In this document: in pieces, positions 15,904-27,385 of the stretch
Layout of the letters: every line of letters begins with the position of its first letter
Numbering within the stretch: the first letter of the stretch is position 1
Origin: Clostridiales bacterium
GTDB taxonomy: Bacteria > Bacillota > Clostridia > Saccharofermentanales > Saccharofermentanaceae
Length of the DNA: 38,345 nucleotides
NCBI GenBank assembly: GCA_017617935.1
Contig: JAFZVF010000068.1
Coordinates: 1-38,345, forward strand
Reading direction: 5' to 3'
Notes under the pieces: generated by a model
Told to the model about the DNA's origin: nothing
What the model saw: only the letters and a program-made list of their open reading frames with translations
Databases searched by the model: none
Program-made: the position numbers and the translations under genes

Positions 15904-16653
15904 ATGCTTAAGATCGCAGTTTACGGCAAAGGCGGGATCGGAAAATCCACCGTAACGTCAAACCTCGCCGCGGCCTTCGCAAGGCTCGGCAAGAGCGTCA
16001 TCCAGATCGGCTGCGACCCCAAGGCCGATTCCACGATAAATCTTTTGGGCGGCAAGCCCCTAAAGCCCGTCATTGAGATATTGAGGGAGGGTATAGAGCC
16101 TTCTTCCGCTGAAGAGATCTCAGCTGAAGGCTATGGCGGCATACTCTGCATCGAAACCGGCGGCCCGACTCCGGGCCTCGGATGCGCGGGAAGGGGCATC
16201 ATCGCAACCTTCAATCTTTTGGACGAACTCGAGCTTTTCGAAAAGAGAAAGCCTGACGTGGTTCTTTACGACGTTCTGGGAGACGTCGTCTGCGGAGGCT
16301 TTGCGGCCCCCATCAGGGAAGGCTACGCGGAGCAGGTCCTTATCGTTACGTCAGGCGATAAGATGGCCCTCTATGCGGCGAACAACATCTGCCAGGCGGT
16401 AAAGAACTTTGAGGACAGGGGCTACGCACACGTCGGAGGCGTCATATTAAATCACAGGAACGTGCCGGGCGAGACCGAGAAGGTCTATTCGTTTGCGGAA
16501 GAACACGGGATCAAGGTCATTGCGGAGATCCCCAGAAGTGACGACATAAACGAGTGCGAGGATATGGGGCACACCGTGGTTGAGAGCAGGCCTGACTGCG
16601 AGGCTTCTCAGAGCTTCATAAAGCTGGCGAAAAGCCTGCTCGGTGAGGATTAA
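15904..16653 (+). CDS. NifH-like ATP-dependent iron-sulfur reductase
   Basis: A 249-aa member of the NifH/BchL/ChlL/CfbC family, shorter than NifH (about 275-295 aa). The P-loop GKGGIGKST is at residues 8-16, and GCDPKADST follows. C94 (GCAGRG) and C130 (DVVCGGFA) match the two cysteines per subunit that hold the shared [4Fe-4S] cluster, so it should be a working homodimeric electron donor. The arginine modified by DraT in some NifH is R97. Known relatives pass electrons, with ATP hydrolysis, to NifDK-type partners; the two component-1-like pairs in this operon are the likely acceptors. It is the first gene of an 11-gene run. It does not by itself imply nitrogen fixation. Confidence 0.92.
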   Translation: MLKIAVYGKGGIGKSTVTSNLAAAFARLGKSVIQIGCDPKADSTINLLGGKPLKPVIEILREGIEPSSAEEISAEGYGGILCIETGGPTPGLGCAGRGIIATFNLLDELELFEKRKPDVVLYDVLGDVVCGGFAAPIREGYAEQVLIVTSGDKMALYAANNICQAVKNFEDRGYAHVGGVILNHRNVPGETEKVYSFAEEHGIKVIAEIPRSDDINECEDMGHTVVESRPDCEASQSFIKLAKSLLGED

Positions 16654-16656
16654 GAC

Positions 16657-25152: not shown

Positions 25153-26196
25153 ATGAAAAAAGCATACAAGATCCTTCCGGTATATACTGGCGACGTGTCA
25201 GGTTTTGCTTCCGCTCTTTATGAGCTCGGGGGCATGTTGGTAATACACGATCCGTCCGGCTGCAACTCGACCTACAACACCCACGACGAGGTGCGCTGGT
25301 ACGATCAGGAGGCGCTGATTTATATCTCTGGTCTGAATGATATTGACGCTATCACGGGTAATGACGACAAGTTCATCAATGACATCGTGCGTGCCGCGGA
25401 GGACATGAAGCCTAAGTTCATCGCGCTCGCAAATTCGCCGTTGCCGTATCTCAACGGAACGGATTTCAAGGGCATTTCGAAGATCGTGGAAGACAGGACG
25501 GGACTGCTTTGCTTCTATGTAAAAACAAACGCGATGCACGACTACACCGTCGGTGCGTCGGAGGCTTTTCTTGCATTTGCGAAAAAGATGCTGAAGCCTT
25601 CAGGCGAAAAGATAAAGGGCGGCATAAACATCTTAGGCAGCACGCCGCTCGATCATACGAATACTGAATTCGTTATCCCCGAAGGCAAGACCGTCGTATC
25701 AAATTGGGCGTACAAGACATCGCTAGATGAAGTGCTGAAAGCGCCTCAGGCAGAGCTTAATCTCGTAGTCTCTTCGACGGGTTTGGCGGTAGCAAAATAC
25801 ATGAAGGAAGCGTTCGGAATTCCATTTGAAATGATGGGAAATTACCTGGATGCAAAGCGTGAAAAGTCGCGAAATTACATCGTCGGAGAGCCTGTAATTT
25901 CGGGCTTTATAGCGGCGCAGATAAAAAAGAGATACGGCACTGATTTCAATGTCGTTGCCGCAACCGAGATTACTGACGGACTGCTGTCTGACTGCGACAG
26001 AAAGTGTCACGGCGAAGACGAGATAAGGGAAGCGTTGTCTGACGCGGAAGTCATCATCGGAGATCCGATGTTTGAACTCATCTCGCCGAAGTCCGCGAAG
26101 TTTATCAGGCTGCCCCATTTTGCGATGTCCGGCAGACTGTTTAGAAAAGAGATTCCTGACCTTTTGAGATTGGAGGATTACTACCATGAGCCTTAA
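25153..26196 (+). CDS. Nitrogenase component 1-like protein, NifK/NifN-type (pair B)
   Basis: A 347-aa paralogue of the 309-aa pair A protein. Shared features in the same order: VSGFASALYELGGMLVI, a GC motif at C37 (PSGCNST), DEVRW, SGLNDIDAITG and SPLPYLNGTDFKGI. As in pair A only one cysteine, C37, stands at a likely cluster position. The C-terminal half is longer and includes GNYLDAKREKSRNY and a PHFAMSGRLF ending. AAGGAGGG (25137-25144) is a strong ribosome binding site for ATG 25153; in-frame upstream start codons precede it and were rejected. The 3' end overlaps hydF by 11 nt. The paired repeat just upstream could influence its expression separately from the earlier genes. Confidence 0.78.
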   Translation: MKKAYKILPVYTGDVSGFASALYELGGMLVIHDPSGCNSTYNTHDEVRWYDQEALIYISGLNDIDAITGNDDKFINDIVRAAEDMKPKFIALANSPLPYLNGTDFKGISKIVEDRTGLLCFYVKTNAMHDYTVGASEAFLAFAKKMLKPSGEKIKGGINILGSTPLDHTNTEFVIPEGKTVVSNWAYKTSLDEVLKAPQAELNLVVSSTGLAVAKYMKEAFGIPFEMMGNYLDAKREKSRNYIVGEPVISGFIAAQIKKRYGTDFNVVAATEITDGLLSDCDRKCHGEDEIREALSDAEVIIGDPMFELISPKSAKFIRLPHFAMSGRLFRKEIPDLLRLEDYYHEP

Positions 26197-27385
26197 CGAC
26201 ACGCCATCGGGCGAGAGGATCCACATCGGTTTTTTCGGCAGGAGAAATGCGGGCAAATCAAGCCTCGTAAACAAGGTCACGAACCAGGACCTGGCAGTCG
26301 TTTCAGACACGAAGGGAACGACGACCGACCCGGTAATGAAGGCGATGGAACTGCTTCCTTTGGGACCCGTCGTGATAATAGACACGCCCGGTTTTGACGA
26401 CGAGGGCGAACTCGGTGAAAAGCGCATTTCAAAGACCAGACTGATTCTTAACAAAGTTGATGTTGCAGTTCTCGTAATAGATCTGGAAGAAGATTTTGGC
26501 GACACTGAAAAGAAGCTGATCGCGCTCTTCAAAGAGAAGGGCATCCCATACATAACCGTTTACAACAAAGCGGATCTCAGAGAGAAGCTTCCGCTCCTGC
26601 GGGAAAACGAGATCTGTGTTAGTTCGGTCACGGGACAGAACGTGAACGAGCTTCGCGAAATGATCGGAAATCTTGGCTCAGCGAAGCAGGAAGGCGAGCC
26701 TCTTATCAGCGATCTTATCGACGCGGGAGACACTGTAATACTCGTCATCCCGATCGATTCATCCGCGCCGAAGGGAAGGATAATCCTGCCCCAGCAGCAG
26801 GTGTTAAGAGAAGTGTTGGACAAGAACGCGAAGGCATACATTACGCAGGACACCGAGCTTGCTTCCGCAATTGCCGACCTCAAGGAAAAGCCAAAGCTCG
26901 TAGTCACTGACAGCCAGGCGTTCGGCAAGGTTGCGCCCGTCGTTCCGAAGGATATTATGCTCACTTCATTTTCAATCCTGATGGCGAGGCACAAGGGATT
27001 TTTGAAGAGCGCTGTTAAAGGCGTGAAGGCGATCGATACATTGGAAGACGGCGACACCGTGCTGATCTCCGAAGGCTGCACGCATCACCGCCAGTGCGAG
27101 GACATCGGCACGTACAAGATACCGAAATGGCTCGGCGAGTACACCGGCAAGAAGATAAACATAGAGACGACTTCAGGTCTTTCTTTTGCGGATGACCTCT
27201 CGAAATACAAGATGATAATCCACTGCGGCGGATGCATGCTGAACGACCGCGAGATGAGATACCGCACAAAGTGCGCTGAGGACGCAGGGATCCCCATGAC
27301 CAACTACGGCACGGCGATCGCGTATATGAAGGGAATACTGAAGCGTTCACTCGAAGTGTTGCCGGACATCAGCGCAGAACTGTGA
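26186..27385 (+). CDS. hydF: [FeFe]-hydrogenase maturation GTPase HydF
   Basis: A 399-aa HydF, the GTPase and iron-sulfur scaffold that receives the [2Fe] subcluster precursor and delivers it to apo-[FeFe]-hydrogenase. The GTPase domain has GRRNAGKSS (18-26), DTPG (66-69) and NKAD. The C-terminal cluster-binding domain has C298-x-H300 (GCTHHRQC) and H346-C347-x2-C350 (HCGGC), the HydF pattern CxH...HCxxC. All these residues are intact. It overlaps the pair B gene and is the last gene of the cluster. In known systems HydF works with the radical-SAM enzymes HydE and HydG; neither is in the window, and four Hyp genes and nitrogenase-like genes stand in the operon instead. Confidence 0.95.
   Translation: MSLNDTPSGERIHIGFFGRRNAGKSSLVNKVTNQDLAVVSDTKGTTTDPVMKAMELLPLGPVVIIDTPGFDDEGELGEKRISKTRLILNKVDVAVLVIDLEEDFGDTEKKLIALFKEKGIPYITVYNKADLREKLPLLRENEICVSSVTGQNVNELREMIGNLGSAKQEGEPLISDLIDAGDTVILVIPIDSSAPKGRIILPQQQVLREVLDKNAKAYITQDTELASAIADLKEKPKLVVTDSQAFGKVAPVVPKDIMLTSFSILMARHKGFLKSAVKGVKAIDTLEDGDTVLISEGCTHHRQCEDIGTYKIPKWLGEYTGKKINIETTSGLSFADDLSKYKMIIHCGGCMLNDREMRYRTKCAEDAGIPMTNYGTAIAYMKGILKRSLEVLPDISAEL

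What the first reader, a model, noticed from the sequence alone, without database searches (positions are those of the whole stretch)
15904..27385. An operon joining a NifH-like reductase, two nitrogenase-like pairs, HypFCDE, a TM1266-type regulator and HydF
Seen: eleven plus-strand genes with overlaps or gaps of a few bases, except one 181-nt gap. Known: HypCDEF make Fe(CN)2CO for [NiFe]-hydrogenases; HydF and TM1266-type proteins belong to [FeFe]-hydrogenase assembly; NifH-like proteins drive ATP-dependent electron transfer to NifDK-like partners. I know of no described pathway that unites the three. Inference: a new route to an iron-CN/CO cofactor, possibly an alternative way to build the [2Fe] H-cluster precursor, in which Hyp proteins supply the diatomic ligands, nitrogenase-like pairs rework or reduce it, and HydF delivers it.
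Basis: partly seen in the sequence, partly recalled or inferred. Interest (0 to 1): 0.94.

Follow-up and report, generated by a model that had tools for sequence, protein, structure and literature searches.

The report
HydG-free hydrogenase cofactor assembly operon
This clostridial operon joins nitrogenase-like genes with genes that normally build nickel-iron hydrogenases, and it likely replaces HydG, the enzyme that makes the carbon monoxide and cyanide of [FeFe]-hydrogenase's active site: the sampled genomes that carry it have no HydG, and nearly all of them have the hydrogenase.

Summary
In detail: eleven plus-strand genes (15904-27385) encode a NifH-like reductase, two nitrogenase-like pairs (D1K1, D2K2), HypFCDE, a TM1266 protein and HydF. 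Of 66 related clostridial loci, 43 keep the order H-D1-K1-hypFCDE-(R)-(H)-D2-K2; hydE follows hydF in 16.

Genomes with it lack HydG. Of 50 named genomes with a D1 locus (46 show hypCDE), none has HydG over cut-off, 47 have HydE, 49 an [FeFe]-hydrogenase, 44 no [NiFe]-hydrogenase and 35 no HypB. In a class sample of 177 genomes 121 have HydF: the operon is in 5 of the 11 without HydG and 0 of the 110 with it (P 2e-6). In the window's genus four genomes have the operon and no HydG; G085 has hydE-hydG-hydF and no operon, yet a nearly identical [FeFe]-hydrogenase. Relatives G189 and G192 have the operon and hydE directly followed by hydF.

The operon most likely replaces HydG: Hyp-made CN/CO on iron, reworked by ATP-driven nitrogenase-like reductases, passed to HydE and HydF. 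The chemistry is untested; two HydG-less genomes keep only H-D2-K2. My paper searches found no description.

The parts
15904..16653 (+). NifH-like ATP-dependent reductase (H)
   Evidence: Fer4_NifH 298 bits; best NCBIfam match nifH 314 bits, below the nifH, CfbC, BchL and BchX cut-offs; P-loop GKGGIGKST; C94 and C130 in 66 of 66 aligned
16657..17970 (+). nitrogenase-like alpha-type subunit D1
   Evidence: Oxidored_nitro 93 bits; PDB sequence match to NifE, E 1.1e-8; nitrogenase-fold model of middling confidence; C70, C71 and C135 in 52 of 52 aligned
17967..18896 (+). short nitrogenase-like beta-type subunit K1, partner of D1
   Evidence: Oxidored_nitro 31 bits, cut-off 28.6; C37 in 63 of 63 aligned; D1 and K1 joined in one frame in L055, L070, L076, L077, L087
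18897..21173 (+). HypF carbamoyltransferase
   Evidence: TIGR00143 739 bits, cut-off 466
21175..21387 (+). HypC (70 aa, MCVGL start)
   Evidence: ORF list and translation; C2 and H45 in 59 of 59 aligned; not scanned against a family library
21384..22430 (+). HypD scaffold/redox protein
   Evidence: TIGR00075 367 bits, cut-off 193; C25, C53 and C56 in 58 of 58 aligned
22427..23431 (+). HypE, ends in PRIC (cyanide-forming C-terminal Cys, role recalled)
   Evidence: TIGR02124 425 bits, cut-off 252; C334 in 55 of 55 aligned
23432..23695 (+). TM1266-family iron-only hydrogenase system protein (R)
   Evidence: TIGR03959 110 bits, cut-off 61
23679..24971 (+). nitrogenase-like alpha-type subunit D2
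   Evidence: Pfam Oxidored_nitro 21 bits, below cut-off; AlphaFold2 model pLDDT 82 matches nitrogenase component 1 chains, Foldseek E 1.9e-14; C56 and C117 in all 60 aligned, some of which are D1 sequences from loci cut before D2
25153..26196 (+). nitrogenase-like beta-type subunit K2, partner of D2
   Evidence: Oxidored_nitro 80 bits; C37 (numbered from the ATG) in all 62 aligned, 15 of which are K1 sequences from loci without K2
26186..27385 (+). HydF, GTPase scaffold that carries the [2Fe] precursor
   Evidence: TIGR03918 553 bits, cut-off 326; CxH...HCxxC cluster residues C298, H300, H346, C347, C350 never replaced in 25 aligned, gaps in 1-4 cut sequences

Best explanation
This operon is most likely an [FeFe]-hydrogenase maturation module that stands in for the missing radical-SAM enzyme HydG, with the Hyp proteins predicted to supply the iron-bound cyanide and carbon monoxide and the two nitrogenase-like pairs predicted to convert that unit, at the cost of ATP, into a precursor that HydE and HydF can use. 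Shown: the genes, their conserved order and cysteines, their near-constant company with HydE and [FeFe]-hydrogenase, the absence of HydG in the sampled genomes, and the opposite state in a close relative. Inferred from known family biochemistry: HypF and HypE make cyanide from carbamoyl phosphate, and HypCD builds an Fe(CN)x(CO)y unit. Inferred with less support: the NifH-like protein drives D1K1 and D2K2 as two separate low-potential reductases that supply extra CO (for example by reducing CO2) and/or swap one cyanide for CO, so that the Fe(CN)2CO made by Hyp becomes an Fe(CN)(CO)2 unit like HydG's product. HydE would then form the diiron core, HydF would carry it, and HydA would receive it.
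For: In 50 named genomes with a D1 locus (46 of which show hypC, D and E): HydG over cut-off in 0, HydE in 47, [FeFe]-hydrogenase in 49. Only 6 of 50 have a [NiFe] large subunit (the four sequences read, three of them from these genomes, are Ech-type) and 15 of 50 have HypB, so in most hosts Hyp has no [NiFe] enzyme to serve. Class sample of 177 genomes: HydF 121, HydG 113; of the 11 HydF+ HydG- genomes 5 carry the operon, of the 110 HydF+ HydG+ genomes none (Fisher P 2.3e-6). Strong D2 orthologues (E below 1e-148) occur in 7 genomes, all HydG- (P 5e-9). These P values ignore relatedness. HydE follows hydF in the same direction in 16 loci (6 read inside the locus, 10 by equal contig length and coordinates; in L058 after about 1.4 kb); L071 fits by coordinates only, and E. 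uniforme has hydF-hydE adjacent. In the window's genus G000, G058, G135 and G158 have the operon and no HydG; G085 has TM1266-hydE-hydG-hydF, no D1 and no HypD. Related genomes G189 and G192 (genus not told), both with the operon, have hydE 80% identical to G085's followed within about 28 bases by hydF 88% identical, without hydG; G187 and G188 keep hydE with G085's upstream neighbour and have hydF in the operon. [FeFe]-hydrogenases of G177, G185, G186 and G190 (operon) are 98.5-98.8% identical to G085's, so nearly the same enzyme must be matured in both backgrounds. Cysteines of HypC, D and E are kept.
Against: No biochemistry. Two 99-100% complete HydG-less genomes (G069, G142) keep H-D2-K2 with HydE and HydF but have no HypD and no D1 orthologue, so Hyp is not always part of the solution. 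G160 (99% complete) has HydE and HydF but neither HydG nor a D1 or D2 match, so HydG can be missing without this operon. Three further HydF+ HydG- genomes (G057, G074, G099) are only 65-79% complete and G074 holds a HydG fragment. The window's own genome is 81% complete and its only hydrogenase match is cut by a contig end. Hyp is known to make Fe(CN)2CO (recalled), which is not the ligand set HydE is known to accept. Three named genomes lack HydE over cut-off (G206, G207, G221) and one lacks a hydrogenase match (G192). L078 and L079 have H-D1-K1 with no Hyp genes behind, and their genomes lack HydG too. hydF does not follow K2 in L041-L044, L046, L049-L051, L053 and L055; HydF was searched only in the class sample. 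In a HydE tree 21 of 27 operon HydEs group together, 6 do not.
Confidence: 0.76

Rival explanations
1. D2K2 with the NifH-like protein is the real HydG substitute, and Hyp plus D1K1 is a separate add-on, for instance a Hyp-based route that supplies only cyanide or that makes a second iron cofactor.
For: Strong D2 orthologues are in 7 of 11 HydF+ HydG- genomes including two without HypD; in G085 hydG lies between hydE and hydF, and in the operon D2-K2 lies between TM1266 and hydF; Pseudoramibacter-type loci have a second H directly before D2 (5 loci).
Against: In most of the 66 loci that are long enough, D1K1 and Hyp are locked together with D2K2 in constant order (43 of 66), and HypD was found in exactly the 5 operon genomes among the 11 HydG-less ones.
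Confidence: 0.3
2. The Hyp genes serve a [NiFe]-hydrogenase and merely share an operon with unrelated redox genes.
For: 6 of 50 genomes have a [NiFe] large subunit; the sequences read are Ech-type with both CxxC motifs. HypB is present in 15 of 50.
Against: 44 of 50 have no [NiFe] large subunit and 35 of 50 no HypB over cut-off, although operon hypC, D and E are seen in 46 of the 50.
Confidence: 0.05
3. The operon makes a new iron-CN/CO cofactor for another enzyme, and HydG is missing because these hydrogenases obtain CO and CN from elsewhere (free diatomics or an unknown HydG analogue).
For: HydF matured with HydE alone gave about 1% activity from trace diatomics in work cited by PMC9431212 (passage). 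HydG-like radical SAM proteins of ThiH size occur in 10 of the 50 genomes. G160 lacks both HydG and the operon.
Against: hydF lies in the operon in at least 29 loci and hydE follows it in 16; in the other 40 of 50 genomes the only match to HydG is HydE itself, or there is none (G206, G207); the operon and hydG exclude each other in the sample.
Confidence: 0.15
4. Missing HydG is an artefact of incomplete metagenome assemblies.
For: Many hosts are MAGs and the window's genome is 81% complete.
Against: G058, G135, G158 (97-99% complete) and G121 (one contig, 99%) also lack it, as do the isolates P. alactolyticus, E. uniforme and P. intestinalis; HydE was found in 47 of the same 50 assemblies; hydE and hydF are adjacent without hydG in G189 and G192.
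Confidence: 0.03

Closest known systems
HydEFG maturation of [FeFe]-hydrogenase
   Same: HydF (in the operon) and HydE (in the genome, often behind hydF) are kept, as are the TM1266 protein and the hydrogenase itself.
   Different: HydG, the tyrosine-cleaving radical SAM source of CO and CN, is absent; HypFCDE and two nitrogenase-like pairs are present instead.
HypABCDEF maturation of [NiFe]-hydrogenase
   Same: HypC, D, E, F with conserved cysteines, expected to build Fe(CN)2CO.
   Different: HypB absent in 35 of 50 hosts and the [NiFe] enzyme absent in 44 of 50; linked to HydF and HydE instead.
NifEN/NifDK with NifH (nitrogenase and its cofactor scaffold)
   Same: Fold, pairing of two subunits, NifH-type ATPase, conserved cysteines; D1's best PDB sequence match is NifE.
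   Different: Far below every NCBIfam cut-off (58 bits for nifE, cut-off 505); in the alignment a NifE cysteine in the region of the cofactor ligand (recalled) is Asp/Asn in D1; K1 and K2 are short (309 and 347 aa).
Other nitrogenase-like systems: CfbCD (F430), DPOR/BchLNB, COR, methylthio-alkane reductase MarHDK
   Same: ATP-dependent two-component reductases on the same fold.
   Different: H falls below the CfbC, BchL and BchX cut-offs and K2 below the BchB cut-off, and the operon carries hydrogenase maturation genes. MarHDK was not tested with a family model.

Membership tests
HydEFG pathway | HydF present | tested here: met
   TIGR03918 553 bits, cut-off 326
HydEFG pathway | HydE present | tested here: met
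   G000:C89:18764-19780, 571 bits, cut-off 255; 47 of 50 named genomes
HydEFG pathway | HydG present | tested here: not met
   0 of 50 named genomes over cut-off; the window genome's only match is its HydE
HydEFG pathway | [FeFe]-hydrogenase target with H-cluster motifs | tested here: met
   49 of 50; of 17 operon-genome loci examined 12 fit my recalled motif patterns, the other 5 were read (one close variant, four of a group B-like type). In the window's own genome only a 24-position match cut by a contig end
Hyp [NiFe] maturation | HypC, D, E, F with catalytic cysteines | tested here: met
   (HypC not scanned against a model)
Hyp [NiFe] maturation | HypB (nickel insertion) | tested here: not met
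   over cut-off in 15 of 50 named genomes, not in the window genome; HypA not tested
Hyp [NiFe] maturation | [NiFe]-hydrogenase in the genome | tested here: not met
   6 of 50 named genomes, not in the window genome
Nitrogenase / NifEN | scores over NifH, NifD, NifE equivalog cut-offs | tested here: not met
   nifH 314 of 394 bits, nifE 58 of 505 bits
Nitrogenase / NifEN | component 1 fold | tested here: met
   Foldseek E 1.9e-14 (D2, TM 0.62) and 1.4e-13 (D1; lower-confidence model, TM about 0.5, rmsd about 12); K1 and K2 not modelled
Nitrogenase / NifEN | interface Fe-S cluster cysteines | tested here: inconclusive
   invariant Cys in D1, K1, D2, K2; placement at the interface rests on recalled ligand positions
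CfbCD, DPOR, COR | scores over family cut-offs | tested here: not met
   CfbC 313 of 402, BchL 213 of 345, BchX 201 of 331 bits
MarHDK methylthio-alkane reductase | family model or sulfur-metabolism gene context | not tested
   only fold similarity to 9fmg and 9d9u seen

The most novel reading that the evidence does not exclude
Nature has a third, tyrosine-free route to the CO and CN ligands of metal cofactors: HypFCDE builds an Fe(CN)x(CO)y unit, and two ATP-driven nitrogenase-like enzymes make the additional CO and remodel the unit into HydE's substrate, giving a complete HydG-independent pathway to the H-cluster and the first nitrogenase-like enzymes that work as hydrogenase maturases.
Probability: 0.5. 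Interest if true: 0.96.

Novelty: categorically new. Interest (0 to 1): 0.92.

Why it matters
HydG is taught as the source of all CO and CN in [FeFe]-hydrogenase. This operon says that dozens of Clostridia, many from rumen and gut samples and some in culture (Pseudoramibacter alactolyticus, P. porci, Eubacterium uniforme, Porcincola intestinalis), likely make the same cofactor without it. It would merge three separate fields of metallocofactor biosynthesis (Hyp, Hyd, Nif), would bear on the open question of where anaerobes get the CO for Hyp-type maturation, would add a new job to the nitrogenase family, and would offer a new tool set for making hydrogenases. It also gives one reason why a genome with [FeFe]-hydrogenase can have no hydG.

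Tried and rejected
Rejected: that the operon stands for missing HydE and HydG together (HydE is present); that Hyp serves [NiFe]-hydrogenase in general; that a HydG-like radical SAM protein substitutes everywhere (ThiH-sized matches in only 10 of 50 genomes). Led nowhere or weak: PDB sequence searches with D2 and K2 gave nothing; the D1 model is of middling confidence (pLDDT 71, from 11 sequences); a search for residues of HydE that separate operon from HydG genomes gave no column at the chosen thresholds, and the HydE tree (no support values shown) is only partly split: 21 of 27 operon HydEs group together, those of G187, G188, G189, G192 group with G085's, and G121 and G193 lie apart. Paper searches for a pathway uniting these genes, or for HydG-less maturation, gave no description; PMC9431212 (passages) reports that hydG was not detected in 5 of 8 Clostridium acetogens, offers several possible reasons and gives no firm explanation.

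Four of the 50 (L052, L064, L078, L079) show no hypC, D, E at the locus; L064 ends in hypF at the contig end. Judging by equal contig lengths, three of the class-sample operon genomes (G058, G135, G158) are the same as named ones (G190, G181, G191), so the two counts overlap. HydF was not searched in the 50 named genomes. Alignments dropped sequences outside 0.75-1.6 times the window protein's length, so fused D1-K1 frames above that size are not in the D1 count.
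Full report
1. Observation. The window holds eleven plus-strand genes from 15904 to 27385 with overlaps or gaps of a few bases, except 181 nt between D2 and K2 if K2 starts at its ATG at 25153. Family scans give NifH-like (H), Oxidored_nitro (D1, K1, K2; D2 only below cut-off), HypF, HypD, HypE, TM1266 and HydF; HypC is a 70-residue frame starting MCVGL, as HypC proteins do (motif recalled). The D subunits have the nitrogenase component 1 fold as far as models show: AlphaFold2 models of D2 (pLDDT 82) and D1 (pLDDT 71) match nitrogenase, NifEN, DPOR and methylthio-alkane reductase chains. 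None of the H, D or K proteins reaches an NCBIfam cut-off.

2. Conservation. A scan of GTDB species genomes with a D1 alignment found 66 loci, in Saccharofermentans-like, Lachnospiraceae, Eubacteriaceae and other Clostridia (one MAG is labelled Coriobacteriaceae), including the isolates Pseudoramibacter alactolyticus ATCC 23263, P. porci, Eubacterium uniforme ATCC 35992 and Porcincola intestinalis. Of 66, 47 keep H-D1-K1-F-C-D-E, 43 continue to D2-K2, and 29 to hydF. Many of the rest are cut by contig or locus ends. Real departures: L070, L073 and L074 have no hypF between K1 and hypC; L076, L077 and L087 have D2 before hypE and no K2 beside it; L078 and L079 have H-D1-K1 without Hyp genes; L052 shows nothing recognised in the 2.7 kb after hypF; hydF does not follow K2 in L041-L044, L046, L049-L051, L053 and L055. 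Five loci have a second NifH-like gene directly before D2, which suggests two separate reductase systems. In five loci D1 and K1 read as one frame. Cysteines are invariant at D1 C70/C71/C135, K1 C37, D2 C56/C117, K2 C37, H C94/C130, and in HypC, D and E.

3. Context in genomes. In 50 of these genomes (46 with hypC, D, E seen), HydG reaches its cut-off in 0, HydE in 47, and an [FeFe]-hydrogenase is found in 49. A [NiFe] large subunit is found in 6; the four sequences read, three of them from operon hosts, have the CGIC and DPCISC motifs of Ech-type enzymes. HypB is over cut-off in 15. In 10 of the 50 there is a ThiH-sized HydG-like protein (ThiH identity is my reading); in the other 40 the only match to HydG is HydE, or there is none. 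In 16 loci hydE follows hydF in the same direction (6 read in the locus, 10 inferred from equal contig length and coordinates; in L058 after about 1.4 kb); E. uniforme also has hydF-hydE adjacent; in L055 hydE lies divergently in front of H.

4. Class-wide control. In 177 genomes drawn evenly from the class, HydF is over cut-off in 121, HydG in 113, HydE in 121 and HypD in 31. HydF without HydG: 11 genomes. Five of them (G000, G058, G121, G135, G158) are all the genomes with a D1 orthologue at E below 1e-180. Two (G069, G142) have a D2 orthologue with H and K2 beside a FecBCD-type transporter and no HypD. Three (G057, G074, G099) are 65-79% complete. One, G160, 99% complete, has neither. No HydG genome of the sample has the operon; weaker relatives (E about 1e-54 to 1e-81) in H-D-K type clusters occur in G141, G072 and G148, of which the last two have HydG. 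Fisher P is 2.3e-6 for the operon and 5e-9 for strong D2 orthologues; genomes are related, so these are guides only. Contrasts within groups: in the window's genus four genomes have the operon and no HydG, while G085 has HydG and neither D1 nor HypD; in family f41 G121 has the operon, while five sampled relatives (G040, G068, G096, G145, G168) have HydG.

5. A natural exchange. G085 carries TM1266-hydE-hydG-hydF. G189 and G192, which carry the operon (their genus is not told), have hydE (80% identical to G085's) and hydF (88%) with about 28 bases between the matches, so hydG is absent at that very place; in G189 the upstream neighbour is the same (88%). G187 and G188 have hydE with that upstream neighbour (87% and 83%), no hydG or hydF beside it, and hydF in the operon. 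Which state is older was not tested. H-cluster motif patterns fit in 12 of 17 operon-genome loci examined; the other five, read, are one close variant and four group B-like sequences. HydE of operon hosts keeps its radical SAM cysteines; 21 of 27 form one group in a tree, but HydEs of G187, G188, G189 and G192 group with G085's, and G121 and G193 lie apart. The simplest reading is that closely similar hydrogenase, HydE and HydF proteins can be served either by HydG or by this operon.

6. Mechanism. Known (PMC9431212 passages; PMC13339137 passages): HydG makes CO and CN from tyrosine as an Fe(CO)2CN unit that goes to HydE; HydF carries the diiron core. Recalled: HypF and HypE make cyanide from carbamoyl phosphate, HypCD holds Fe(CN)2CO, nitrogenases and their Fe proteins can reduce CO2 to CO and can reduce cyanide. 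I infer that the Hyp proteins supply the iron-cyanide unit and that D1K1 and D2K2, each driven by a NifH-like protein, supply CO and adjust the ligand ratio. The place of D2-K2 next to hydF, where G085 has hydG, and the survival of H-D2-K2 alone in two HydG-less genomes, point to D2K2 as the more central of the two. Which pair does what is open.

7. Novelty. No paper found in this library joins nitrogenase-like proteins with Hyp and HydF or describes HydG-free maturation in nature (searches; open-licence papers only). PMC9431212 (passages) notes acetogens without a detectable hydG and offers no firm explanation. PMC6974650 (passages) reports hydrogenase transcripts and predicted H2 production in a Pseudoramibacter, a genus whose two species examined here (P. 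alactolyticus, P. porci) carry the operon and lack HydG; that organism's own genome was not examined here. Each part belongs to a known family; the combination and the proposed job do not belong to any system I know, which is why I rate it categorically new, with the chemistry untested.

Noticed in passing
L130 (G069) 901-8331 and L131 (G142) 6813-14668: H-D2-K2 clusters next to a FecBCD-type ABC transporter in HydG-less, HypD-less genomes with HydE and HydF; in G142 the transporter ATPase is fused to a TM1266 domain, in G069 hydE lies beside it. Whether an iron compound is imported for H-cluster assembly is unexplained.
   Followed up: partly
L135 (G160) 8047-12298: TM1266-hydE-hydF followed by a B12-binding radical SAM protein, in a 99% complete genome without HydG and without D1 or D2; possibly yet another HydG substitute.
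   Followed up: partly
L132 (G141), L133 (G072), L138 (G148): A separate H-D-K nitrogenase-like family (in L138 only D and K seen), in L132 and L133 beside genes of FecBCD-like size and order (not scanned), in genomes with and without HydG; function not studied.
   Followed up: no
L076, L077, L087, L078, L079: Lachnospiraceae variants: D1-K1 fused (L076, L077, L087), D2 without a K2 beside it and hypE apart; L078 and L079 have H-D1-K1 with no Hyp genes following.
   Followed up: partly
G193, G198, G206, G212, G215, G217, G218, G221, G223: HypB over cut-off, in several as two tandem copies, in operon genomes where no [NiFe] large subunit was found.
   Followed up: no
window 24972-25152: The 181-nt gap between D2 and K2 holds repeated CGTAAAC/GTTTACG-like words; the D2-K2 gap is much shorter in most relatives of the same type.
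   Followed up: no
window 27495-27854: ORF6N-domain protein just after hydF, of the kind seen in mobile elements (kind recalled).
   Followed up: no
window 7446-9500, 9537-10202, 10650-11459, 34524-36458: Several BspA-type leucine-rich repeat proteins scattered through the window; the one at 9537-10202 only below Pfam's cut-off.
   Followed up: no
G000:C41:4-75 (L001): The only [FeFe]-hydrogenase match of the window's genome is cut off by a contig end, leaving the C-terminal MGCPGGC..GGGQP part.
   Followed up: yes
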